Source: an uncultured Bacteroidales bacterium (GTDB lineage Bacteria; Bacteroidota; Bacteroidia; Bacteroidales; Bacteroidaceae). Taken from it: a stretch of 50,017 nucleotides of DNA. The translations under genes and the position numbers were made by a program. The notes beneath the pieces were generated by a model that worked only from the letters and a program-made list of their open reading frames with translations, had not been told where the DNA came from and made no database searches. This document shows positions 12,101 through 30,100 of this stretch, in pieces (positions within the stretch are counted from its first letter, which is position 1; the number at the start of each line of letters is the position of its first letter). The stretch spans positions 1 through 50,017 of the forward strand of contig CADCIP010000023.1 in the NCBI GenBank assembly GCA_902801485.1, in the 5' to 3' direction.

Positions 12101-14884
12101 ATGAAATCAGCAACATTCTCGCTATTATTGGTCGCTCTCGGCTTCTTATCTGTCAACGCTCAACAAAGACTGAATGTAATGCTCAGCGACAAGACGGTAC
12201 AGAACTTCCCCCTTTCGGAAGTAGACCAGATCGCCTTCGATAACCAATCATCTGTATTGGTCCAAACGGGAGATGCTTCCTCAATAACTACAACGGGGGC
12301 AAGTGTTTCTGCCAGAATAACTTCCGAAGACCCTACACCTGAAGATTTCTCATATGGTATTCTCTTTGGGACAACCAGGCATCCACAACAGCAGGTTCCT
12401 GCATCAGGAGCATTACAGGACGGCGTATATTCTGTCAGCCTGACCAACTTGACACCTGCTACCACATATTATTACAGACCATATGCTATTCAAAACGGTA
12501 TCATATATTACGGCGATGTTTCTTTTTTTCAAACAGTTGAAGAGAAAGTCAATACCGATGGCGTCGCTTTTCTCAGTCAGTATGCCACTCCCGACGATAT
12601 CCTACAGAATGGCGATGACGATGAAGCCTCTGCCTGGTTATGGTTCCATCAGGAATATCCCCAGTGTCCCTTCCTCTATGCTGGCAATATTCATGCTGCC
12701 AGTGACCTGCTTCCTTATCGTGTGCTTTTCTATATCCGCGACTTAGATGCCGGCAGCGAAAATGATGCATGGACACAACCTTCCAGCATTCAGCAAGCCA
12801 CACCTTATATAAAAGAATGGTACCGCAACGGCGGCAATATGGTGCTGTGGCAGCATGCTGTTACATTTATTACTGATTTGGGCCGTATGGACCGTGATAT
12901 GATGCGTAATTGCGATCATCGCATTACCATTGGCAAAGGTTCTTGGAACCAGGGACAGTGGTATATGGCCGTTCAGTTAAATCCAGCCAGCCGTTTCATC
13001 AAGGATTTCTCAAAGCATCCTCTTTATCGCGGTCTGGAAATCCGTTCGACTGGCCGCTCCAAGTTCATTACTGTCAAGGGGCCAGCTTGGACAGAAGACC
13101 ACAATTGTGTTTTCCATAATCTTCCGGCTCAACTAACCGGACTTGGTAATCAGGATCCCCGTTGTTACGAAGTACTGACAGACACCTACGGCATCTATCC
13201 CCTTGCGGTATGGGATTCGCAAATCGACTGGATTTCGCAGCTCAACGTATGGGAAGCACGTCAGGGTAATACAGACTTTAAGGGAACTATACTTTGTGTC
13301 GGTAACGGAGGGCTGGAGTTTTCTTATAAGAATGCCGATGGAACGCCGGACAAAAGTTCTTTCCCTCGTAACAGCCCCTTCCAGTCTAATGTCCTCAAGA
13401 TAGCAGCGAATGCTATCGGATATTTAGCATCCGGAAATCTCTACGATTGGTCCGAGACCACAACCGCCTCTTCTTCTGACTACCGCGAGAAGATGCGCCC
13501 TCAGATTCATTTCACACCTGCCAAGAATTGGATTAACGATCCCAACGGTATGGTTTATGCTGATGGCATATGGCATCTTTATTATCAATATAACCCTTCC
13601 GGCCCCGATTGGGGTAATATATCCTGGGGACATGCTACTTCCTCAGACCTCTTCCATTGGAAGGAACAGCCTGTAGCACTGGAATCGGACAATCTGGGAT
13701 TTGTCTATTCAGGCTCGGCAGTCGTCGATTCTTCTAACACGGCAGGATTCGGGGAGAATGCTATTATAGCCATGTATACTTCACACGGTGCCCACGAACA
13801 ACAATGTATTGCCTATAGTACGGACGGCGGTATGACATTCACCAAGTATGAGAAGAATCCGGTCATCAAGAATACGACCTATGGTGATTTCCGTGATCCT
13901 AAGGTCGTATGGGACGATACGTCTAATGCGTGGTATTGCATTCTGGCCTTGGGTGGAGAACATTCTGCACAGATATATCGCTCCTACAACCTTAAGACGT
14001 GGACGCTGCGCTCCACCTTTACTGCGCCAGCCTATGCACCTGCCTGTAATCGCGGCATCTGGGAGTGTGCCGACCTTTTCCCCATCCAGTATAAGGGCGA
14101 GCGCAAGTGGGTGTTAACTGTCAATGTCAGCGATGGCGGCCCTGTCGTGGGTTCGGGCACCATGTATTTTGTGGGTAACTTTAGTTCTGGGCGTTTTACC
14201 CCCGACCGTTATAGCTATCCTCTTTGGGAAGATCATGGTATGGACGATTATGCCAGTGTCATCTGGAGCAATACCGGAGACAGAAGGGTTTGTATAGGCT
14301 GGATGAATAATCAGGCTTATGGAGGCTATCCCGTTTCACCATGGCGATGCTGTATGACGTTACCCAGAGAGATGGTACTCGAAGAATATAACGGGCAACC
14401 TCTTCTCAAGACCACTATTGTTAAGGAAATCGAAGGTATCGCCGAACCTTGGCAGACTTTGTCTGCTGCCAACTCATTTATTGAGAAACCCTCCGGTGAA
14501 TTGCCCGATGCCTATCAACTGAATGTGACTGTTGATATGACCGCAGATGCAGACCTCATACTTGCTAATGCTATAGGACAGGAGTATGGCATTCATATCG
14601 ATGCCCAGCACCGCGAGATAATCATCAATAGAGGGACAAAAAGCGGGAACACAGATTTCAATGCCAATTTTGCTATCCCCACTATGCGTTCTTCACTCTA
14701 TTCCGACAAGGAGAAGATAACGCTCTGCGTTTTTGTTGACCAGTCGAATGTCGAGGTAACCACCGAAGACGGTTCTGTTATAATGTCCACGCTTGTCTTC
14801 CCTGATACCATATACAACCGCGTCTCCCTGTCAGGAAGTACAGAAGAAGGTAAGGTAAGACTTCTCAGAAGCGTATGGAGATAA
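12101..14884 (+). CDS. secreted GH32 fructan hydrolase with N-terminal accessory domains
   Basis: A 927-residue exported enzyme of the levanase/inulinase/invertase family. The signal peptide (to about residue 20, SVNAQ) is followed by a fibronectin III-like segment (about 50-145), a roughly 250-residue domain resembling DUF4960 of Bacteroidetes glycan enzymes (about 155-440), and a GH32 catalytic domain (about 460-927). The three GH32 motifs are intact: WINDPNGM (nucleophile D480), RDPKVVW (transition-state stabiliser D599) and WECADLF (acid/base E655). A C-terminal beta-sandwich ends the protein. Fructan is the inferred substrate; endo or exo action cannot be told. No SusC/SusD pair, fructokinase or sensor regulator is next to it, unlike classical Bacteroides fructan loci. 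It has no sorting tail. Confidence 0.93.
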   Translation: MKSATFSLLLVALGFLSVNAQQRLNVMLSDKTVQNFPLSEVDQIAFDNQSSVLVQTGDASSITTTGASVSARITSEDPTPEDFSYGILFGTTRHPQQQVPASGALQDGVYSVSLTNLTPATTYYYRPYAIQNGIIYYGDVSFFQTVEEKVNTDGVAFLSQYATPDDILQNGDDDEASAWLWFHQEYPQCPFLYAGNIHAASDLLPYRVLFYIRDLDAGSENDAWTQPSSIQQATPYIKEWYRNGGNMVLWQHAVTFITDLGRMDRDMMRNCDHRITIGKGSWNQGQWYMAVQLNPASRFIKDFSKHPLYRGLEIRSTGRSKFITVKGPAWTEDHNCVFHNLPAQLTGLGNQDPRCYEVLTDTYGIYPLAVWDSQIDWISQLNVWEARQGNTDFKGTILCVGNGGLEFSYKNADGTPDKSSFPRNSPFQSNVLKIAANAIGYLASGNLYDWSETTTASSSDYREKMRPQIHFTPAKNWINDPNGMVYADGIWHLYYQYNPSGPDWGNISWGHATSSDLFHWKEQPVALESDNLGFVYSGSAVVDSSNTAGFGENAIIAMYTSHGAHEQQCIAYSTDGGMTFTKYEKNPVIKNTTYGDFRDPKVVWDDTSNAWYCILALGGEHSAQIYRSYNLKTWTLRSTFTAPAYAPACNRGIWECADLFPIQYKGERKWVLTVNVSDGGPVVGSGTMYFVGNFSSGRFTPDRYSYPLWEDHGMDDYASVIWSNTGDRRVCIGWMNNQAYGGYPVSPWRCCMTLPREMVLEEYNGQPLLKTTIVKEIEGIAEPWQTLSAANSFIEKPSGELPDAYQLNVTVDMTADADLILANAIGQEYGIHIDAQHREIIINRGTKSGNTDFNANFAIPTMRSSLYSDKEKITLCVFVDQSNVEVTTEDGSVIMSTLVFPDTIYNRVSLSGSTEEGKVRLLRSVWR

Positions 14885-18617: not shown

Positions 18618-18932
18618 ATGAAACGTTTATTTGCATACATTATAGCTACAGTGCTATTTTCACAGGTTATGTTCGCAGTCATACTTGTACAAAAGCCCGC
18701 TAAAGGTTTTTCTTTATCACAGACATATATCGTTCCCGCCAGGAATTATAAGAATAAGAGTTACTTTGCTCCTAAGCTTTGGTTATCTCAGCATTGTAAG
18801 AAGCAGAATGTTGACTGGACCATAGAGAGATTCTCGCATCCAAAAAGGCATAATATCCCAAATAGGGTTAACCGCATCCCCTCACAGAGGAAATTATGTC
18901 AAATGTCGCAGCAGACCTTTGTGACTCGTTAA
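18618..18932 (+). CDS. small basic secreted protein, unknown family
   Basis: 104 residues beginning MKRLFAYIIATVLFSQVMFA, a plausible signal peptide or membrane anchor, followed by about 80 residues rich in K, R, Q, N and S with two cysteines (in QHCKKQ and KLCQMS). An AGAAAG ribosome site lies about 7 nt upstream. I do not recognise the family. Support for it being real: it starts after the nested hairpin element, fills the + strand up to a strong terminator 32 nt beyond its stop, and has export features like its neighbour at 17984. A strongly basic exported peptide suggests nucleic-acid, envelope or antimicrobial interaction, but that is speculation. Confidence 0.55.
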   Translation: MKRLFAYIIATVLFSQVMFAVILVQKPAKGFSLSQTYIVPARNYKNKSYFAPKLWLSQHCKKQNVDWTIERFSHPKRHNIPNRVNRIPSQRKLCQMSQQTFVTR

Positions 18933-18964
18933 AATAAGTATTGTTTAAGGTAGTGAATTGTTAG

Positions 18965-19012
18965 ACCTGCTATACCCTCGTTGGAAGAGAGGGATAGCAG
19001 GTTTACTTTTTT
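18965..19012 (+). terminator. terminator after the small basic protein gene
   Basis: A stem of ACCTGCTAT plus CCCTC (18965-18979, one bulged A) pairing with GAGGG plus ATAGCAGGT (18989-19002), a 9-nt loop, then TTTACTTTTTT. Confidence 0.88.
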
Positions 19013-19082
19013 ACTATAACCCATAACCTCTACCCCATAACCTCTAATTCGACTTCGGCCTGAATAATATGGCACCAACGCA

Positions 19083-21398
19083 TTATTCTTCAATAGTTGG
19101 AGTCTCGAAATTATCAAGTATCTCGAGTGAAGTGACATGGAAATCACCTTCACCGCTTCCTTCAATCTTCAAAATGAGGTTCTGCCAATAGGTAATGGTA
19201 CCCGTAGAGACATGGACGGTTTTGCATTTGTACCCCAGATACTCTGTATCGCCAAATGTCATGCCTTCCATATTACGACCTGCTTCCTTTTTCTGCCAAC
19301 GGCAAAAGTCGTACGTCCTGATCCAATCGGGTTCTAAGACGTGCATGCAAGTGGAAATAGGCATTACATTATTTGGTAAGGCATACCATCCCATAGGGGT
19401 GTGCACTTCTACCTTGTTACCTTGCTTACGGAAGTCTGCCTCACCATCTTCACCTACCACATGTTCGTAGATATTATTACCTCCATCCCGGTACTGAATG
19501 GTGCTGATATGTCCACCCATGCTGACAGAAGCATTGAAGTTCTTGATCTCCCAAGGCAGCTCTTCTTCAAGTTCCTTGATGATATTTCCATCACCGTCCA
19601 GGATTCGTGTTGCAAGAATGGTACGATATCCCAAGGGGATGCGTGACTTAAATGTTGTATGTGCAATACCGTCGTCGTCACATTGTGTGGCCCACTCTGA
19701 ACCTTCTATTTCATGCATCTCTACAGTTGCAGGCATCACAGACTCTGCCTGCCGCCGGGCAGAGGGATGCTGCAACTTGCCAAGAGCCTGTTCGTACGGA
19801 AAATCTGACTTCTGACACTGCATTACGGCATGTTCCTGCCCCAAAGCAGGTGTTACCGGTTCGTCATATAATGAAGCATAGGTCTGGAAATCGCGCGTGT
19901 CCTCAACATCATACGAGCAGAGGGTAACCTTCTGATTGTTGACTGGTTTAACATCAGAGGGTGAATGGTAGAGTTTTGTTACGAGGAAATCTTCTGTAGT
20001 ATGTGAGACGTAGTCATCACTATCCACAAAGGGAGCATTAAAGTAAAGTCCGCCGCGCAGGTTTGCTCCAGCTTCAAGATCAAAGCTGCCAAAGTCATTC
20101 ACACCTTTACGTTCTACTCCTTTATAAGTAGCCTTCAGGTAAGGCATAAGGTCAAGGTGCATACCAAAGACGACATCAATAAGCAGGTCGAGCCTGAGAT
20201 ATGGCGAGAAGCGCGCCATGATGGTTCCCTCCTTGGATAGTATCTCCGGCTTCTGAGGCTCAAAGACGGGTTTAATGTCAAGAATGGGCTTCAGGCTGCC
20301 AGCCTCGCGTGTATATTCCATTCCGGCCGTTAGCGTAAATCCTGTCTTAGTGACTTGCTGTAACTTTATTTCTGCCTCTATGGCCGCCTGAATGTTGTAT
20401 CCTAATGTCCCTGAAAGGTCGAGCCACAGAGGAATTACCACGGGACCTGCAGGAATCATGAATTTTCCGGAAGCTTTGAACAGCGGTTTTTCCAGATATT
20501 TATCCTTCTCGAAGTTGATACCTACACGAGGTGTCAATTCCAGGGTTGTTGTCTTCTCGTAGGTTCCGCGAGCAACAAAGCCCATGTATTCTATTTTAGC
20601 CAGGAAGGAACGGGCACATTTTTCATTCCTGCGCGGTTCGCTAAGTTTAAACTTGGCATCGATATCAAGGCTGCTCTTGTCGGCACTGGTAAGACTCATT
20701 CCCATCTCGGCAAAAAGCTTCACTGGCCCTTTCTCAATCTCAACCTTTGGAACAGCCTCTAAGCCAGGAGTGCGACGGGCTCTATAAACCGGTAGCGGGT
20801 CACCGCTGGCGCTCTTGGTTTCGAAATAGGTATTGTCGGGATTTGCTGCCAGTACAAATTCTGTATTGTAGATCAACTCCTCGATGCTGGCAAAGCGGAA
20901 ACGTATGTCGGCCTTCTTCCCAATTATCTTGTAGGTAAGGACATAGCAGTTATAGGCAGCGGTATCGTTTTCTAATGACAGAATCTTACCGACATACAAC
21001 TGCGGCACATCCTCCTTGAATTGCACTTGTGCATGACAAAGCGCTGTATCCATCAGCAGGATTTCGTACGAATCCACTTCAGGGTGTTCGAAGTTGGGGT
21101 TGTACTTGTCTGTCTCCTTAGGTGTAAGAAGAGGATCTTGTGCGGTTTCTGTTTTGTCAGCAAAGCGAATCTGCTTGATGTCCTGCCCGCCAAAGGAAAC
21201 GGTCTGGCCATCAGAGACAAGGGTATAGATATCTTGCTCTGCATCGTATTGGAAGGTCTCTGCCACAGAAGCAGGGTACAGGTGCATGTCACCCTGACAG
21301 GTAACAATAACCATCTGGTCTTGAGCCCTCAGCATTGTAGGCATGAGGAACAATGCAGCCGTGAGGACTGTCTGTATTTTTGCGTATATCTTTCTCAT
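19083..21398 (-). CDS. large secreted protein of unknown function
   Basis: 771 residues with a signal peptide (to about residue 25, MLRAQ). The first 80 residues resemble the short beta segment seen in several exported proteins of this window (IVTCQGDMHLYPAS ... GGQDIKQIRFAD), followed by long beta-rich stretches (for example LLDIVFGMHLDL-type amphipathic strands) and an acidic C-terminal end. It has no lipobox, no sorting tail and no recognisable catalytic motif. Its start overlaps the stop of the upstream gene by four bases (ATGA), so the two are translationally coupled. The upstream protein ends in a sorting-type domain that this one lacks, so one may depend on the other for display. Expression is presumably set by the rplS-like leader at 21874-21964. 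An adhesin or surface-scaffold role is possible but unproven. Confidence 0.7.
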   Translation of the reverse strand: MRKIYAKIQTVLTAALFLMPTMLRAQDQMVIVTCQGDMHLYPASVAETFQYDAEQDIYTLVSDGQTVSFGGQDIKQIRFADKTETAQDPLLTPKETDKYNPNFEHPEVDSYEILLMDTALCHAQVQFKEDVPQLYVGKILSLENDTAAYNCYVLTYKIIGKKADIRFRFASIEELIYNTEFVLAANPDNTYFETKSASGDPLPVYRARRTPGLEAVPKVEIEKGPVKLFAEMGMSLTSADKSSLDIDAKFKLSEPRRNEKCARSFLAKIEYMGFVARGTYEKTTTLELTPRVGINFEKDKYLEKPLFKASGKFMIPAGPVVIPLWLDLSGTLGYNIQAAIEAEIKLQQVTKTGFTLTAGMEYTREAGSLKPILDIKPVFEPQKPEILSKEGTIMARFSPYLRLDLLIDVVFGMHLDLMPYLKATYKGVERKGVNDFGSFDLEAGANLRGGLYFNAPFVDSDDYVSHTTEDFLVTKLYHSPSDVKPVNNQKVTLCSYDVEDTRDFQTYASLYDEPVTPALGQEHAVMQCQKSDFPYEQALGKLQHPSARRQAESVMPATVEMHEIEGSEWATQCDDDGIAHTTFKSRIPLGYRTILATRILDGDGNIIKELEEELPWEIKNFNASVSMGGHISTIQYRDGGNNIYEHVVGEDGEADFRKQGNKVEVHTPMGWYALPNNVMPISTCMHVLEPDWIRTYDFCRWQKKEAGRNMEGMTFGDTEYLGYKCKTVHVSTGTITYWQNLILKIEGSGEGDFHVTSLEILDNFETPTIEE

Positions 21399-21859
21399 GG
21401 CTTCACAATTTTAATCGCAGGTTGGTTATCTATCTTCACGATGAAAGTGCCGGAGGATTTCCCGGATATCCTGACGGTGGCCCGTCCATTAGAGGGTACT
21501 GCCTGTTGACTGACCTGCTGCCCCGAACTGTCATAGACCCGTATCAGGCTACCGGCTTTCAGTCCTTCGGCCTTAAGGCGTCCGTTGGCATCTACAGCGA
21601 CTTTGCTTCCGCCGTTCTTGACTATCTTTATGGCATCCTCGTCAGAAGCACTGAATCCTCGGAAATCAGTACGAGGAATGCAGAGTTCGGTATTGCCTGC
21701 GCTGATAATGATATTACCGCCTTCCCATAGCAATTCCGGGCGTTCGCTTAATAGCAGCACGTGTCGGGTTCCATCGGCAAGCGTCAGCGTCAAGGTGTTC
21801 TGTGCCGACAGCCCTGTTGCGCATAGGACTAATGATAAATAAATAAGAATCCTTTTCAT
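21395..21859 (-). CDS. small secreted protein with C-terminal sorting-type domain
   Basis: 154 residues: a signal peptide (to about residue 20, GLSAQ), a short N-terminal beta segment (NTLTLTLADGTRHVLLLSE), then a C-terminal half that reads like a type IX secretion sorting domain (GLKAGSLIRVYDSSGQQV ... GTFIVKIDNQPAIKIVKP). There is almost no cargo between signal and sorting domain. It is the first gene of a two-gene - strand operon coupled by an ATGA overlap to the 771-residue secreted protein. Its 5' untranslated region is a near-copy of the rplS leader. It could be a surface attachment partner for the second protein; that is inference. Confidence 0.75.
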   Translation of the reverse strand: MKRILIYLSLVLCATGLSAQNTLTLTLADGTRHVLLLSERPELLWEGGNIIISAGNTELCIPRTDFRGFSASDEDAIKIVKNGGSKVAVDANGRLKAEGLKAGSLIRVYDSSGQQVSQQAVPSNGRATVRISGKSSGTFIVKIDNQPAIKIVKP

Positions 21860-21873
21860 GTGTTTTTATTACC

Positions 21874-21964
21874 TATGTTTAAAAATTGTTTGTCGATCAC
21901 CAATAGGCATAACAGGTCTCACTTCCCCTGCCAGCGACCTATGGAAAAGCGAGCGTGAAGGTAC
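21874..21964 (-). ncRNA. second copy of the rplS (bL19) leader, upstream of a secreted-protein operon
   Basis: Read on the - strand this matches 84 of 92 aligned positions of 24008-24099, with seven substitutions and one deleted A. The predicted hairpin arms CCATAGG/CCTATTGG and GGCAGG/CCTGTT are identical in the two copies. Three of the seven substitutions fall in the apical loop and the rest upstream of the hairpin. The -7 box TACCTTTG of the rplS copy reads TACCTTCA here, so this copy may need another promoter. Confidence 0.8.
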
Positions 21965-22026
21965 AATAAAAAGTTGAAAGTTGAAAGTTTAGAGTTAAAA
22001 GTTTTTGGATTTTATGTAAAAATATG

Positions 22027-22034
22027 TATTTTTG
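22027..22034 (+). promoter_or_regulatory. promoter -7 box of the 5'-nucleotidase C-domain gene
   Basis: TATTTTTG followed by C, 20 nt upstream of the ATG at 22054. It rules out the in-frame ATG at 22024, which would lie upstream of the box. Confidence 0.65.
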
Positions 22035-22053
22035 CACACCAAACGTTATAATT

Positions 22054-22815
22054 ATGAAGCACATACCAGGTATATTTCTGTTTTTTCTTAACTTTTCGCT
22101 CCTTACACTTTACCCTGTATCAGCGCAACAGTATAAGGTGCGTTCTACCAAATGGAAACAGCTTGAGGTAACAAGCGACTTAGATAAAAAACCTGACTCT
22201 CTGGCATTGGCCATCATAGCCCCATACAAGGCTAGTGTAGATAGTGTGATGTCTCCTGTATTGGGAATGAGCCGTGTAGCCATGGTTCCCAAAAGGCCGG
22301 AAAGTCTGCTCAGCAACTGGGCGGCAGATGTGTTGGTTGAAGGCAGCACGGCCACGGGACTGCCTGTAGCCGATATGGGACTGGTGAATATAGGCGGTTT
22401 GCGCAACAACATGCCGGAAGGCATGGTAACATGCGGCGATATCATCCTTATCTCACCCTTCGAAAATACACTTGTCGTGTTGGAGATGAAAGGGAAGCAC
22501 ATGCTTGAACTCATGCGCAATATAGCTGCTGTAGGAGGCGAGGGAGTAAGCAGCAGCGTAAGAATGGTTATCAGCAAAGACCGTAAACTTATCAGCGCTA
22601 CCATTAACGGCGAGGAAATCTCCCGAAAACGTACCTATACCGTTGCCACATTAGACTACCTGGCAGAAGGAAACGACAAAATGTTTGCCCTGAAGAAAGC
22701 CAGGAAACGCCATGATATTGGTCTGAAAACCCGCGAGGTATTGATGGAAAGTGTAATTAAGCACCGCATCATCGACAGCAAGATAGAAGGTAGAATTGTC
22801 ATAAGTGATAAATAG
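22054..22815 (+). CDS. 5'-nucleotidase C-terminal domain protein
   Basis: A 253-residue exported protein (signal peptide to about residue 24, PVSAQ) made only of the substrate-binding domain of UshA/5'-nucleotidases: LLSNWAADVLVEGS, VNIGGLRNNMPEG, DIILISPFENTLVVLEMKGKHMLELM and RTYTVATLDYLAEGND are characteristic. In UshA this domain follows the metallophosphatase domain in one chain. Here it is a separate gene placed before the gene for the metal-binding half. Together they would release nucleosides and phosphate from nucleotides outside the cytoplasmic membrane. I chose the start at 22054 because the promoter lies between it and the earlier ATG. Confidence 0.88.
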   Translation: MKHIPGIFLFFLNFSLLTLYPVSAQQYKVRSTKWKQLEVTSDLDKKPDSLALAIIAPYKASVDSVMSPVLGMSRVAMVPKRPESLLSNWAADVLVEGSTATGLPVADMGLVNIGGLRNNMPEGMVTCGDIILISPFENTLVVLEMKGKHMLELMRNIAAVGGEGVSSSVRMVISKDRKLISATINGEEISRKRTYTVATLDYLAEGNDKMFALKKARKRHDIGLKTREVLMESVIKHRIIDSKIEGRIVISDK

Positions 22816-22872
22816 CCCCAACCCCTCCCTCTAAGGAGGAGGGGGAGTTTAGAGTTTAGAGTTTAGAGAAAG
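22816..22872. repeat. dispersed palindromic repeat, copy 3, plus GTTTAGA heptamers
   Basis: CCCCTCC ... GGAGGGGG-type palindrome (22816-22847) directly followed by about three units of GTTTAGA/GAGTTTA. The two repeat types together fill nearly the whole gap between the two 5'-nucleotidase half genes. Confidence 0.7.
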
Positions 22873-22886
22873 AACCCCGTGAAAAC

Positions 22887-23729
22887 ATGAATCTTATGAA
22901 ACATACATTGTTTATAATATTATTGCTATTTCCCATAGCGCTTTCGGCTCAGCCGAAAAAGTTCCTTATCGTTCACACCAGTGATACGCATTCATGTATA
23001 GAACCGCTTTCTGCTAATTTTACTGTTGCTTCGTTTGCCAACAAGGGCGGATATGTACGACGTATCTCCTTATTTAACCAGTTAAGGGAACAGTATCCGG
23101 ACGGAATGCTGGCCTTCGATTGCGGTGATTTCTCTCAGGGAAGTGTGTACTACAACCTGTTTAAGGGCGAAGTAGAGGTAAAACTCATGAACATGATGCA
23201 TTATGATGCCGTAACGATAGGAAACCATGAGTTTGACTTCGGCCTGGAGAATATGGCTCGCATCTTCCGTATGGCAGAATTCCCCATTGTCTGCTGCAAT
23301 TACGATTTTACGGGAACGCCTTGTGAGGGTTTGGTTAAGCCGTACATTGTGGTTGAACGGGGCGGCAGGAAGATTGGCGTCTTTGGTGTCTGCCCGCAAC
23401 CCAAGGGACTTATAGTAGGGAAGAACTACGAAGGAATGAAATACACATCTCCGGCTGTAGCAGCTCAACCCGTCATTGACAAACTGCGCAAACAGGAGAA
23501 ATGTGATGTGGTGGTATGTCTCAGTCACTTAGGATGGGGCGATGCATCGGACCAGGACAAAGGTTTCATCGCCAGAATATCGGGTATTGACGTCCTTCTG
23601 GGCGGTCACTCACACACATACTTCAAAGAACCTGCGTATGTAAACGATAAGAAAGGCCATCAGGTAATTGTTGACCACGAAGGCAAAAATGCCTGCTTCG
23701 TAGGAACCATCGAAATGGAGGTGGAGTAA
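22887..23729 (+). CDS. 5'-nucleotidase metallophosphatase domain protein
   Basis: A 280-residue exported calcineurin-like phosphoesterase, the N-terminal half of UshA-type enzymes. Metal-site motifs in order: IVHTSDTHSCIEP, FDCGDFSQGS, GNHEFDFG, SHLGWGD and GGHSHTY. The signal peptide ends near residue 21 (ALSAQ). It stops where the C-terminal domain would begin in a full-length enzyme; that domain is encoded by the gene just upstream. ATGs at 22887 and 22896 are both possible starts, and the first is used here. The two proteins probably work as a pair on extracytoplasmic nucleotides. Confidence 0.9.
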   Translation: MNLMKHTLFIILLLFPIALSAQPKKFLIVHTSDTHSCIEPLSANFTVASFANKGGYVRRISLFNQLREQYPDGMLAFDCGDFSQGSVYYNLFKGEVEVKLMNMMHYDAVTIGNHEFDFGLENMARIFRMAEFPIVCCNYDFTGTPCEGLVKPYIVVERGGRKIGVFGVCPQPKGLIVGKNYEGMKYTSPAVAAQPVIDKLRKQEKCDVVVCLSHLGWGDASDQDKGFIARISGIDVLLGGHSHTYFKEPAYVNDKKGHQVIVDHEGKNACFVGTIEMEVE

Positions 23730-23748
23730 TCACGTGGTTCAACAAGGC

Positions 23749-23836
23749 GAAACTGTCGGTTCCGCCGTCCGGAACTGTCGGTTCCTCCGTGCGGAACTGT
23801 CGCTTCCACCATGCGGAACTGACAGTTCCACTTAAT
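23749..23836. repeat. four 22-bp tandem repeats with nested palindromes
   Basis: Units start at 23749, 23771, 23793 and 23815. Each holds an odd-length palindrome-like core (GGAACTGTCGGTTCC in the second unit, a perfect GGAACTGACAGTTCC in the fourth) followed by a CCGTGC-like spacer. They lie between the nucleotidase gene and the rplS leader; the rest of 23730-24007 is AT-rich and shows only GTAAATG-type heptamers near 23905. Confidence 0.85.
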
Positions 23837-24007
23837 GTTACTGTTGCGGGACTTGTTGCCAAAATTAAAGAATGCTCCAGCCTTCAGACCCCAGACTTTC
23901 ATCCGTAAATGGTAAATCGTAATTGGGTAAATGATAAAAAAAGTGATAATTTTAGGTAAAAACAGTAAATTTATGAGATATAAATTATGAATTATAAATT
24001 AAAAGTA

Positions 24008-24099
24008 GTACCTTTGCGCCCGCTTTCCCATAGGTCGCTGGCAGGAGAAGTGTGGCCTGTTATGCCTATTGGTGATCGACAAAACAATTTTTAAACATA
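24008..24099 (+). ncRNA. rplS 5' leader, candidate ribosomal-protein leader RNA
   Basis: It starts at an exact -7 box TACCTTTG (24009-24016) and runs to just before the rplS ribosome site. It folds as CCATAGG (24028-24034) with CCTATTGG (24065-24072) and GGCAGG (24040-24045) with CCTGTT (24056-24061) around a 10-nt loop. Leader elements that bind their own ribosomal protein are known for bL19 in some bacteria; whether this one is such an element is inference. A second copy lies at 21874-21964. Confidence 0.65.
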
Positions 24100-24106
24100 A
24101 AGCAAA

Positions 24107-24475
24107 ATGGCTGATTTAATTAAAATTGCTGAAGAAGCATTTGCTACAGGCAAGCAGCATCCCTCATTCAAGGCTGGTGACACTGTTACCGTAGCATACA
24201 AAATTGTCGAGGGTAACAAGGAGCGTGTTCAGCTCTATCGTGGTGTTGTGATTAAGATCTCAGGTCACGGCGAGAAGAAGCGTTTCACTGTTCGTAAGAT
24301 GTCTGGTACCGTTGGTGTTGAGCGTATCTTCCCCATCGAGTCTCCCGCCATCGACAGCATTACCGTAAACAAGGTAGGTAAGGTACGTCGCGCTAAGTTG
24401 TACTACCTGCGTAACCTCACCGGTAAGAAGGCACGTATCGCTGAAAAGCGTGTTGTCGCTAAGGAAGCAGAATAA
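24107..24475 (+). CDS. rplS: 50S ribosomal protein bL19
   Basis: A 122-residue ribosomal protein located at the interface of the 30S and 50S subunits. Recognisable stretches are [49 protein letters not shown] and [13 protein letters not shown], in the family order. The length is typical of Bacteroidetes bL19. It is a single-gene transcript with its own promoter, a structured leader of about 90 nt and a strong terminator. In many other bacteria rplS sits with rpsP and trmD; here those are absent. Confidence 0.98.
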
Positions 24476-26847: not shown

Positions 26848-26921
26848 CCTCTCCCCTAACTTTTCTAAAAGGGTTCCCGTTAACGTTCCCCTCTCCTCGG
26901 AGAGGGGTCAGGGGAGAGGCC
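26848..26921. repeat. dispersed palindromic repeat, copy 4, with internal insertion
   Basis: Outer arms CCTCTCCCCT (26848-26857) and AGGGGAGAGG near the end, with an inner CCCCTCTCC/GGAGAGGGG hairpin. Compared with the simple form at 48039-48070, about 28 extra bases separate the first outer arm from the inner hairpin. Confidence 0.75.
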
Positions 26922-26930
26922 AAAATAAAA

Positions 26931-26982
26931 TTTTTTTGATGATTTAGTTTCCAGTTTCGCCAAAAAGTTATACCTTTGCGCC
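26931..26982 (+). promoter_or_regulatory. tRNA-Leu promoter region
   Basis: It contains an exact -7 box TACCTTTG (26971-26978), about 20 nt before the tRNA. The 52 nt match 33685-33736 at 50 positions. Confidence 0.8.
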
Positions 26983-26997
26983 GTCTTAACCAAGAAT

Positions 26998-27079
26998 GCG
27001 CCTGTGGTGGAATTGGTAGACACGCTAGACTTAGGATCTAGTGCCGCGAGGCGTGTAAGTTCGAGTCTTATCAGGCGTA
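26998..27079 (+). tRNA. tRNA-Leu (UAG anticodon)
   Basis: 82 nt without encoded CCA. The acceptor stem GCGCCTG pairs with CAGGCGT (first pair G-U). The anticodon stem CTAGA/TCTAG closes the loop CTTAGGA, so the anticodon is TAG (leucine, CUN codons). The long variable arm is a GCC/GGC stem, as expected for class II tRNAs, and the T stem is GTAAG/CTTAT around TTCGAGT. Own promoter upstream, terminator directly downstream. Confidence 0.95.
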
Positions 27080-27082
27080 CAA

Positions 27083-27120
27083 AAAAAGAGGCCGTCGGTT
27101 TATCCCAACGGCCTCTTTTT
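27083..27120. terminator. bidirectional terminator between tRNA-Leu and the glutaminase-like gene
   Basis: A 13-bp stem AAAAAGAGGCCGT (27083-27095) / ACGGCCTCTTTTT (27108-27120). It gives a T-run on both strands, so it can end the tRNA and the convergent - strand gene. Confidence 0.9.
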
Positions 27121-27129
27121 ATTCTTAAC

Positions 27130-30100
27130 TTAATAAAGCACCTTCTTACCATTCATAATATAGATGCCCTTCTTTAATTGAGAATTAACTTTTCTTCCAG
27201 AGAGGTCATATACGTCTCCCTCCCATTTGGGGGAGGGTTGGAGAGAGGGGCTTATCCCCGTCATCAGCTCACCGGAGAGGCACTTGTCCAAGAGCACTTT
27301 CATCCAATGACCTCCCACGACCGAACGGCCGATGAATGCCACGCTATTTCCGCTGTCGGTAAAGAACCAGTCAGAAAGTGGAACACGAGACTTGGTCTCG
27401 TTGGCATATCTGTACAAACGATCCATGTGGAGAATGAACTGTGCCTGAGTACCCAGGCAGGCTGTCCACGAAATCCAGTCACTCTTCGAATAAACAGAGC
27501 GGTTATCCAGGGGAAGTCCGTATGTCTTTGTCTGTCCGTTATAGTATGTCATCTCCTGCTTGTAAACAGCGTCGGGGAAGAGTTTTGTCTGCCATACCTT
27601 ATCCCAGACCATATTGTATTTCTGACTCCAGGTGCCAGACCTGTCGAATGCCAGCTTGTAGTGAGCTCCGTCTTTGGCCAGTTTTACCCATTCAGTAGCC
27701 ATTTCCTGAGCCTTGCCGAAGTAGTAATTATAACTGTCCATATCTCCCTTCTGCTTGCACATCAGTGCAAATCCGGTTACACCCATGATGGCTTTCAGAG
27801 AGAGGTTGGCATTGTGTGCCAGATGACCGGCAAAGTCATCGGTACAGAGCTGGTTCTCGGGGTCGAGACCGTTTTCTACCAGATAGTCTGTCCATTTCTT
27901 CAGCGTCTTCCAGTACTTGTTGGCCCATGTCATATCATTGTCGATAAGGGTGATGGCAGCAGCCAGAACCACGATATTACCGGATTCCTCGATGGGCATA
28001 TTACCGGCAAAGCCGCCGTTGGCATCCGGGAAGCGGATGGAATATACCTGATTGTTGGCATGAGGATAGGTGCCCAGGTCGTGGGCAGCAAAGTTGAATC
28101 CCCATCGGCTGCTCTCGCAATAGTCCAGGATAGATGTACACATACCCTTCATCAGGTCTGTATTATATATAAGGAATAAGGGAGCGGACGGATAGGTCAG
28201 GTCAACGGTGTTCACACAGCCGTTAGAGTTGTTCTCCTTCGAGAAGAAGAGCAGGTTCCCCTTGTTGTCCTGGAAGATCTTATGTGCCGCAATAACATGG
28301 CGGTAGCAGCCGGAAAGCAGCTCGGCATACTTGGCATTACCGGCGGCCAGACCGTCATCGTAGATTATCTTATCCTGTGCCTGACAGTCGGCCATAATCT
28401 GGTCGTAGCGGTCGTGCAGCTCCTCAAAGGCTGCAAAGATTGTCTTGCCGTTGCGGGCCCAGTAGCCTTTGTAATCGACATCCATATAGCGCATATCCTT
28501 CACTTCGTCGTAACCTATCATCATATAGGAATTGGCCTGTAGTACTTTCCCTAAATCCTTGCTGAAGGCCAGCAGGGGCATGTCGGCATCCTCTGAGCTG
28601 GACAAAGCAGTTGTGGGTGCCTCCGGCAGTTTGCCTGTCGAGGCAAAGGTGTTGGCAATCTCCGTGCGGTTACCGATTGTTATGTTTCCGTTAATCTCGG
28701 GAATGTACAGATAACCCCAGTCGATGCAGATCATGTCGCCGGCTTTGCCCAGTACGTGCTGTGTCTTGGCACCCGACTTGATATAGCGTATGCCGTTTTG
28801 TTCAGTGACGGAAGAAACGGTAGCCTGCATGTTGTTGTTAACGGTAAGCTCTGGAGTGGTAGCAAAGAAGAACTGTACATCATGTTCCTCACCGTCGTTG
28901 GAGGTTACCTGATAGGAGATGAAGTTGATGGGTGTTGACATCAGATCTACATCGTTCATCAGCATAGGTGCAGTGAAGACAACATCCAGTGTTACCGGTC
29001 CGCAGGTGAATTTATAGTATGTATTGGTAGCCAGTACATGACAGTTGGTCTGATTGGCTATCTGCTCGCCTGCTATACTGTAGTACAGACCTATGTCGGC
29101 CAAAGCACCACCCGTAGTGTTGTGAACATGGTATGCAATCATGTTTTCTCCTTCGTGTAATACTGCTTTGTCATCGTCTGTAAGTTGATAATTCACATTC
29201 TTTACCCATGTCTCGCCTGTCGAGAAAATCCGGCGTCCGTTGATATAACCCTCGCAGACGTCGTCATGCGAATAGATGACGTGCAGGTCACGTTGCAGAT
29301 CCTCGGCAGTAAGGGTTACTTTGCGGCGGATATAAATATCGGATCCTGTTTTGGTCCAGGGGGTGTTGACGTATGGTTCGCCGTCAGAACCGAAAGCTCC
29401 CTGTTGGGTCAGCCATGTTGAGCCGGTATCATCATAATCCTCTTTGGTCCATGTTGTTCCGGAGATAGCTGCTGTACGGACGCGAGCCTCCCAAGGTCCC
29501 TGATCTGCCATAGGAGCGATGGCTTCCATGCCGGGGTGGAAACCTAAGATGTTTCGGAACAGACCTACGTCGGCCAAAGCGCCGCCTCGGGTATTGATTA
29601 CGTGAAATGCAATAACATTATCACCAACGACTAAGGCATCACGTGAGCTGCCTTGCAGGTGGATTTTTACGTTCTGTTTCCAGGTCTCTCCGTTCGTTGC
29701 CTCTGCCAGTTTTACACCGTTGATGTAAAGCTCGAAGTTATCGTCGTGGGAATAAACCATCCACAGGTCGGATTTCAGGTCTTCCTCTGTCAGGGTTACA
29801 TGACGGCGGATGTAGTATTGCGACAGGTCGTTCCAATTAGTATAAACCCCGTCATACTCGTTTTGTGAGCCGAAGGCGCCATAGCCGTTGGTCCATCCGC
29901 TTTCGCTGGCATCCTTCTCGTACCAGTTGGAAGCTGCATTCGACCGTTTGATTTTTGCAATCCAGCGGCCTTTGTTTCCCATTGGGGCAATGGCTTCGAG
30001 CAATATATCTTTCTGTGAACCCATGAAGCGGTAGTTTGTACCATCTACACGCAGGATACCGTCCATAGCCTTAACAGCTCCTGTCCAGTGCCGGGTGGTT

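What the first reader, a model, noticed from the sequence alone, without database searches (positions are those of the whole stretch)
21874..24099. The rplS (bL19) leader RNA is duplicated in front of a secreted-protein operon
On the - strand at 21964-21874 and the + strand at 24008-24099 there is the same roughly 91-nt leader, 84 of 92 positions identical. Both hairpin arms are unchanged, while three of the seven substitutions are in the apical loop. In one copy it heads rplS, in the other a coupled pair of exported proteins, one with almost no cargo besides a sorting-type domain. A ribosomal-protein control element taken over by a surface-protein operon would tie its expression to ribosome supply. 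The -7 box is exact only in the rplS copy. The inverted arrangement also encloses about 2 kb that could invert by recombination between the copies.
Basis: partly seen in the sequence, partly recalled or inferred. Interest (0 to 1): 0.78.

Follow-up and report, generated by a model that had tools for sequence, protein, structure and literature searches.

The report
Displaced ribosomal-protein leader in gut bacterium
The repeated stretch is a real RNA control element that normally precedes the gene for ribosomal protein L19 in many Bacteroidales, and its second copy here is best read as an L19 control region stranded in front of a surface-protein operon by a local DNA rearrangement and probably decaying.

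Summary
In detail: 84 of 92 positions match, hairpin arms unchanged, -7 box intact only in the rplS copy. The element is a real structured RNA: 90 rplS leaders of the genus covary; a model built from them finds it in 127 of 139 genus genomes, in two copies only here; a broader model finds it in 57 other Bacteroidales genomes, 56 directly before rplS. No Rfam 15 family matched the leaders submitted.

The takeover reading is weak. The copy before the surface operon, with about 90 bases upstream and nucC, is an rplS control region in its usual context: 92.7% identical over 245 nt to relative G102's region running into rplS. nucC diverges from rplS in 27 of 27 relative loci holding both; here that block is turned round, and a phosphoesterase-gene remnant lies beside sec771. 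The stranded copy has 7 private substitutions against 1, two in the -7 box that is intact in all 90 rplS leaders. Most likely a rearrangement relic; co-option is possible, unproven.

The parts
24009..24099 (+). rplS (bL19) leader RNA with its -7 box; P1 24029-24034 with 24065-24070, internal loop 24035-24040 / 24061-24064, P2 24041-24045 with 24056-24060, apical loop 24046-24055
   Evidence: model R1 100.8 bits; covariation on 90 rplS leaders
24009..24016 (+). -7 box TACCTTTG of rplS
   Evidence: in all 89 fetched relatives an exact TANNTTTG begins 98-110 nt before the end of the rplS ATG; consensus recalled
24107..24475 (+). rplS, ribosomal protein bL19
   Evidence: PF01245 2e-43, TIGR01024 over cut-off
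21873..21963 (-). displaced second leader: hairpin and internal loop intact, -7 box changed to TACCTTCA (21963-21956)
   Evidence: model R1 87.2 bits; 7 private substitutions
21964..22053 (-). nucC/rplS-type intergenic region, still next to nucC
   Evidence: 21965-22060 is 93.75% identical to the same region of G102; 21866-22110 is 92.7% over 245 nt, ending at the first base of rplS there
21395..21859 (-). por154: 154-aa exported protein with a weak T9SS type A sorting domain
   Evidence: TIGR04183 24.2 bits against a cut-off of 23; PF18962 below its cut-off
19083..21398 (-). sec771: 771-aa exported protein, overlaps por154 by 4 nt; close homologue in the genus only in G102, weak partial matches in G069, G010 and G130
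22054..22815 (+). nucC: 5'-nucleotidase C-terminal-domain protein (ORF may start at 22024)
   Evidence: PF02872 3.3e-22; divergent from rplS in 27 of 27 relative loci that hold both
22887..23729 (+). calcineurin-like phosphoesterase
   Evidence: PF00149 1.7e-14
19039..19073 (+). 35-nt remnant of this phosphoesterase gene or a close homologue (GNHEFDFG region), beside the 3' end of sec771
   Evidence: 83% to the corresponding place in G102; best score 25 against at most 18 in 500 shuffles, 5 of 9 genes above 18 on their own
23730..24007 (+). flank of the rplS leader, unlike the flank of the other copy: the 48-70 nt next to the leader resemble the AT-rich rplS flank of G021 and G051 (77-79%); the rest has only short dispersed-repeat matches

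Best explanation
Two things are present. (1) The element is a bL19 ribosomal-protein leader of the Bacteroidales: a transcript start set by a -7 box, then a 5' hairpin made of a covarying outer helix, a conserved asymmetric internal loop (UCGCUG / UAUG here, often CUCUG / UAUAU in more distant genomes) and a covarying inner helix, then an A/U-rich stretch to the rplS start. By analogy with other ribosomal leaders, free bL19 most likely binds the hairpin and lowers expression of its own mRNA; that step is inferred. (2) The second copy is an rplS promoter and leader with its nucC neighbour, in which por154 now stands where rplS should be. A segment holding phosphoesterase, nucC and leader was duplicated around the incoming por154-sec771 pair; one phosphoesterase copy shrank to a remnant, the block lies turned round, and rplS uses the other leader copy. 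Whether the stranded region is this genome's own old one or came with por154-sec771 from a G102-like strain is open. The stranded copy drives por154-sec771 weakly at best and is most likely drifting. The adjacencies are shown; the order of events is inferred.
For: Structure: 94.7% of cells paired against 85.1% in shuffles and at most 56.3% for slid partners; 9 of 12 pairs with changes on both sides. Order-wide alignment: covariation score 0.566 against 0.202 shuffled. R1 finds 127 of 139 genus genomes, two copies only here. rplS follows in 89 of 89 fetched genus loci and, on the same strand within 20 nt of the match end, in 56 of the 57 other Bacteroidales genomes hit by R2, of which 37 were not used to train R2 (36 of 37). 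All 10 genomes hit in a class-wide sample of 296 belong to the order. Displacement: por-side leader plus flank 92.7% identical over 245 nt to the G102 region ending at rplS; nucC divergent from rplS in 27 of 27 relative loci; phosphoesterase remnant beside sec771. Drift: 7 private substitutions in the por copy, 1 in the rplS copy, 0 in G102, two of the 7 in the -7 box; no exact TANNTTTG in 504 nt before por154.
Against: The arms and internal loop of the displaced copy are unchanged, as expected if it were still used (chance 0.04 with all 7 substitutions, 0.07 with 6). Two boxes one mismatch away from TANNTTTG lie 188 and 165 nt before por154. bL19 binding is untested. Single-sequence folding is no better than shuffles for the rplS copy (z 0.24; other copy -1.35), the number of further pair types does not exceed shuffles (448 of 500 reach it, 369 of 500), and the RNAalifold covariation term is small (-0.86). 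RNAalifold also pairs part of what I call the internal loop. The por-side flank is not alike in all relatives: G021 aligns over the leader only and G036 little beyond. No relative shows the proposed intermediate. G102, the only other genome with a close por154-sec771, ends its contig at the por154 start codon. The window is one contig of one assembly and both outer junctions lie in repeat-rich DNA, so a misjoin there is not excluded. R2 finds the leader in only 58 of 294 order genomes at its threshold.
Confidence: 0.65

Rival explanations
1. Promoter and leader capture that works: the surface operon is now made from a former rplS promoter and leader, and free bL19 turns it down, tying it to ribosome supply.
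For: Hairpin arms and internal loop identical in the two copies, chance 0.04-0.07; 87.2 bits, within the range of genuine leaders; ends about 14 nt before the por154 ATG, like a 5' UTR.
Against: The -7 box is lost although exact in all 90 rplS leaders, and no other exact TANNTTTG lies in 504 nt upstream; 7 against 1 private substitutions; 1 of 139 genomes.
Confidence: 0.16
2. Invertible segment: recombination between the two inverted leader copies still flips nucC-phosphoesterase (21965-24007), swapping the upstream flanks of rplS and por154.
For: The leader pair is the longest inverted repeat found in 18800-24200 (114 nt at 79% including flanks); the enclosed block lies opposite to all 27 comparable relative loci; flipping it back would restore the usual nucC-leader-rplS order.
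Against: No recombinase family among the 32 of 33 naive ORFs (90 aa or more) of the window scanned with Pfam; 92% identity over 91 nt is poor fuel for homologous recombination (general knowledge); flipping alone does not explain the phosphoesterase remnant; no reads.
Confidence: 0.12
3. Assembly chimera: the odd arrangement is a misjoin of two strains.
For: Both outer junctions lie in dispersed repeats; identity along the window is a mosaic of relatives; G102's contig ends at por154.
Against: The decisive joint, second leader to por154, is in unique sequence: that leader carries private mutations and runs without a break into nucC on one side and por154 on the other.
Confidence: 0.07
4. A DNA-level operator (dyad bound by a regulator), not an RNA element, explains the covarying arms.
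For: Paired arms can also covary in DNA dyads (general knowledge).
Against: The pairs form two nested helices around a conserved asymmetric internal loop, downstream of the -7 box in the presumed 5' UTR, as in ribosomal leaders.
Confidence: 0.05

Closest known systems
L19_leader, Rfam RF00556 (Firmicutes; L19 leaders also reported in Flavobacteria in PMC7247131, passages read)
   Same: A 5' UTR structure before rplS, inferred autoregulation by bL19
   Different: RF00556 finds the Bacillus subtilis control over its cut-off but none of 13 near genomes and none of 296 class genomes over it (sub-threshold hits in G000 contig C32 and in G504), and gives no match at the leaders submitted
L13 and S4 ribosomal leaders of Bacteroidia (Table 1 of PMC7247131, passages read)
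   Same: Lineage-specific ribosomal leaders in the same class
   Different: Different genes; that table lists no L19 leader for Bacteroidia
Invertible promoters flanked by inverted repeats in Bacteroides (recalled, no call)
   Same: Inverted repeats enclosing a segment next to surface-protein genes
   Different: Known ones have short near-perfect repeats and a site-specific recombinase (recalled); here the repeat is a 91-nt diverged leader and no recombinase was found in the scanned ORFs

Membership tests
Ribosomal-protein leader (r-leader), as a kind | Conserved RNA structure with covariation in the 5' UTR of a ribosomal-protein gene | tested here: met
   transcript start itself not mapped
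Ribosomal-protein leader (r-leader), as a kind | The encoded protein binds the leader and regulates expression | not testable with these tools
   needs a binding or reporter assay
Ribosomal-protein leader (r-leader), as a kind | Resemblance to the protein's rRNA site (present in some r-leaders only) | not tested
   no 23S comparison made
RF00556 L19_leader | Match to the family's covariance model at its gathering score | tested here: not met
RF00556 L19_leader | Lies directly upstream of rplS | tested here: met
   89 of 89 genus loci, 56 of 57 order hits
Functional r-leader (second copy only) | Hairpin and internal loop intact | tested here: met
Functional r-leader (second copy only) | Promoter able to make the transcript | tested here: inconclusive
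   -7 box lost, no other exact box in 504 nt, two with one mismatch; transcription itself not testable
Functional r-leader (second copy only) | Kept in relatives | tested here: inconclusive
   only G000 has it; the one other genome with a close por154 ends at its start codon
Site-specific invertible segment | Recombinase nearby | tested here: not met
   none in 32 of 33 naive ORFs of the window; elsewhere in the genome not searched
Site-specific invertible segment | Both orientations present in the population | not testable with these tools
   no reads

The most novel reading that the evidence does not exclude
The displaced leader still works: a weak or altered promoter transcribes it, free bL19 binds the intact hairpin, and a surface-protein operon is thereby under ribosomal-protein feedback. 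A rearrangement would have rewired a non-ribosomal operon to ribosome supply in one step.
Probability: 0.16. Interest if true: 0.78.

Novelty: new member of a known kind. Interest (0 to 1): 0.46.

Why it matters
A bL19 leader spread over the Bacteroidales would add a feedback element to a dominant gut and rumen order. No Rfam 15 family matched the leaders I submitted, and Table 1 of the 2020 ribosomal-leader survey lists none for Bacteroidia. In seven further searches of open papers no listed title or abstract start reported one; one search listed 12 of 21 papers. It can be tested at once in laboratory Bacteroides strains. The displaced copy is a natural experiment: the same leader with and without its ribosomal gene, showing which part has decayed (the promoter box) and which has not (the hairpin).

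Tried and rejected
Rejected: a recent copy of the leader alone pasted in front of the surface operon, because the por-side copy carries the nucC flank typical of rplS leaders. Rejected: a dispersed leader family in the genome, because only two copies were found in G000. Rejected: membership of RF00556; the sub-threshold hits in G000 (C32) and G504 were not followed. Left open: whether the rplS-side copy with its flank comes from a G021/G051-like strain (77-79% over 48-70 nt of AT-rich sequence that also recurs elsewhere) and the por-side copy from a G102-like one. Considered: a single inversion through the leaders; it does not by itself explain the phosphoesterase remnant beside sec771. Two histories (tandem duplication then inversion of the block, or inversion through the leader repeats after an inverted duplication) fit about equally well. 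Not done: comparison of the hairpin with 23S rRNA; structure prediction of proteins.

Full report
CHECK OF THE OBSERVATION. Over 24008-24099 and 21964-21874 the two copies differ by seven substitutions and one missing A (84 of 92 identical). The match has E = 2.2e-30 in the 3.6 Mb assembly and no third copy is listed. Substitutions at leader positions 38, 45 and 47 lie in the apical loop; no change lies in either helix or the internal loop. The -7 box TACCTTTG is exact only before rplS. The + strand copy heads rplS. The - strand copy heads por154 (154 aa, weak type IX sorting domain) and sec771 (771 aa, no match at E 0.1 in Pfam or NCBIfam), whose reading frames overlap by 4 nt.

THE LEADER IS A REAL STRUCTURED RNA. 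A DNA search with the rplS copy matched 120 of 139 genomes of the genus, the window's included. I fetched 89 of the 119 others: all 89 have rplS directly downstream, and in all 89 an exact TANNTTTG begins 98-110 nt before the end of the start codon. The 89 plus the window copy were aligned from that box on; none was dropped for lacking it. For a structure of two nested helices around an asymmetric internal loop, 94.7% of cells are paired (85.1% in shuffles, at most 56.3% with slid partners) and 9 of 12 pairs show changes on both sides. RNAalifold unaided gave the inner helix and three pairs of the outer one, plus pairs in part of what I call the internal loop and one two-pair hairpin at the 5' end; its covariation term is small, -0.86. 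Also against: the number of further pair types does not exceed shuffles (448 of 500), and single-sequence folding is no better than shuffled sequence for the rplS copy (z 0.24) and only slightly for the other (z -1.35).

DISTRIBUTION. Model R1 finds 127 of 139 genus genomes; each has a single match except the window's genome, which has two (strict filters, 31 candidates scored per genome). In 294 genomes of the order R1 finds 22, the window's own included. Of the 21 others, 20 lie directly before rplS; the exception, L185, matches little more than the promoter (E 0.007). Model R2, built from 41 sequences including those 20, finds 58 of 294. Of its 57 hits outside the window's genome 56 have rplS on the same strand starting within 20 nt of the match end; 37 of the 57 were not used for training, and 36 of these have rplS (exception L230, E 0.0047). 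The order-wide alignment covaries more strongly still (0.566 against 0.202 shuffled), though it was fitted to the structure. In 296 genomes sampled from the class R2 finds 10, all in the same order; the two genomes new in that search (G582, G606) also have the leader before rplS. Rfam 15 gives no match at the leader in the window, in 20 order loci (its 11 weak matches lie elsewhere) or in 20 genus loci. RF00556, the Firmicutes L19 leader, finds Bacillus subtilis over its cut-off but none of 13 near genomes and none of 296 class genomes over it. Table 1 of PMC7247131 (passages read) lists L13 and S4 leaders for Bacteroidia but no L19 leader; the text mentions L19 leaders in Firmicutes and Flavobacteria. 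PMC2864571 (passages read) does not contain the term L19. In seven other searches of open papers I saw only listings, and none reported this element; one search listed 12 of 21 papers. Absence from print is claimed only within these searches.

WHAT THE SECOND COPY IS. Of the 29 relative loci (the best matches), 27 hold both nucC and rplS and in all 27 the two diverge with the leader between them; L027 and L031 show no nucC in the stretch held. In the window nucC and the phosphoesterase point the same way as rplS and lie between the two leaders. The stretch 21866-22110 (por-side leader, its flank and the start of nucC) aligns without a break to the nucC-leader-rplS region of G102 (92.7% over 245 nt); 21874-22101 to G072 (88.6% over 228 nt); and parts to G033 (89.7% over 184 nt), G090 (86.2% over 188 nt) and G123 (81.0% over 248 nt). 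Not all relatives share this flank: G021 aligns over the leader only (91 nt) and G036 over 113 nt. The flank of the window's own rplS leader is different: its last 48-70 nt resemble the AT-rich rplS flank of G021 and G051 at 77-79%, and the rest of 23730-24007 finds only short dispersed repeats. The por-side copy is thus an rplS control region in its nucC context, with por154 where rplS should be; whether it is this genome's own old one or came from a G102-like strain is open. G102 (by content and contig length the GTDB record RUG13701) is the only other genome of 139 with a close sec771; G069, G010 and G130 have weak partial matches. G102 has por154-sec771 on the far side of the phosphoesterase and its contig ends at the por154 start codon, so the upstream sequence is unseen. 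A 35-nt remnant of the phosphoesterase gene, or of a close homologue, lies beside sec771 in the window; its best local match falls in the corresponding region of all nine phosphoesterase genes compared (best score 25, at most 18 in 500 shuffles; 5 of 9 exceed 18 on their own). A second leader and a second, mostly deleted phosphoesterase are what a duplication of the phosphoesterase-nucC-leader segment around por154-sec771, followed by deletion and an inversion, would leave. The order of events is inference.

IS THE SECOND COPY USED? With G102 as reference, the por-side copy has 7 private substitutions, the rplS copy 1 and G102 none; the rplS copy's one extra A was left out of this count. Two of the 7 hit the -7 box, whose TTTG is unchanged in 90 of 90 rplS leaders, and no exact TANNTTTG lies in 504 nt upstream of por154, though two sequences with one mismatch do. 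The model score is 87.2 bits, against 100.8 for the rplS copy and 99.9-103.6 for the eight near relatives G102, G036, G021, G051, G072, G033, G090 and G123. For function: none of the 7 substitutions touches the 32 core positions, a chance of 0.04 (0.07 for 6, leaving out the one at the 3' edge). I put a working captured leader at 0.16.

INVERSION. Whether it flips now needs reads. No recombinase family was found in 32 of the 33 naive ORFs of 90 aa or more in the window (the one left out, 26880-27152, overlaps a tRNA).

MECHANISM. Shown: conserved promoter box, conserved and covarying hairpin, fixed place before rplS in the genomes of the order where it is found. Inferred from established knowledge of ribosomal leaders: free bL19 binds the internal-loop hairpin and lowers expression of rplS. 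Not tested: binding, regulation, resemblance to 23S rRNA.

VERDICT. Observation confirmed; interpretation partly supported. The ordinary part is a rearrangement relic. The part worth keeping is a Bacteroidales bL19 leader that no Rfam 15 family matched here.

Noticed in passing
G138:C34:10874-10898, G083:C28:120081-120105, G060:C33:58618-58642 and other places listed: The first 21-25 nt of the query (just before the -7 box to the early transcribed sequence) recur at 96-100% identity elsewhere in several genomes of the genus; possibly a shared start region of strongly expressed promoters.
   Followed up: no
window 21965-22001, 22846-22868, 23748-23813, 23905-23940: Several dispersed intergenic repeat types sit near the rearrangement junctions and recur many times in this and related genomes.
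   Followed up: partly
window 19083-21398 against G102 C57: sec771 is a patchwork: 200-nt windows range from about 44% to 97% (identity times coverage) to its only close relative, as in a fast-recombining surface protein.
   Followed up: no
window 22054-23729: An UshA-like 5'-nucleotidase appears split in two genes, the C-terminal-domain gene first and the metallophosphatase gene second; the same order is seen in the relative loci that hold both.
   Followed up: partly
L040 (G102:C57) position 13841: The contig of the only other genome with a close por154-sec771 ends inside the por154 start codon, where a leader repeat could have made assembly ambiguous.
   Followed up: partly
G000:C32:19501-19526 (L187): Sub-threshold RF00556 match (28.9 bits) elsewhere in the genome; seen, not reported, where fewer candidates were scored.
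   Followed up: no
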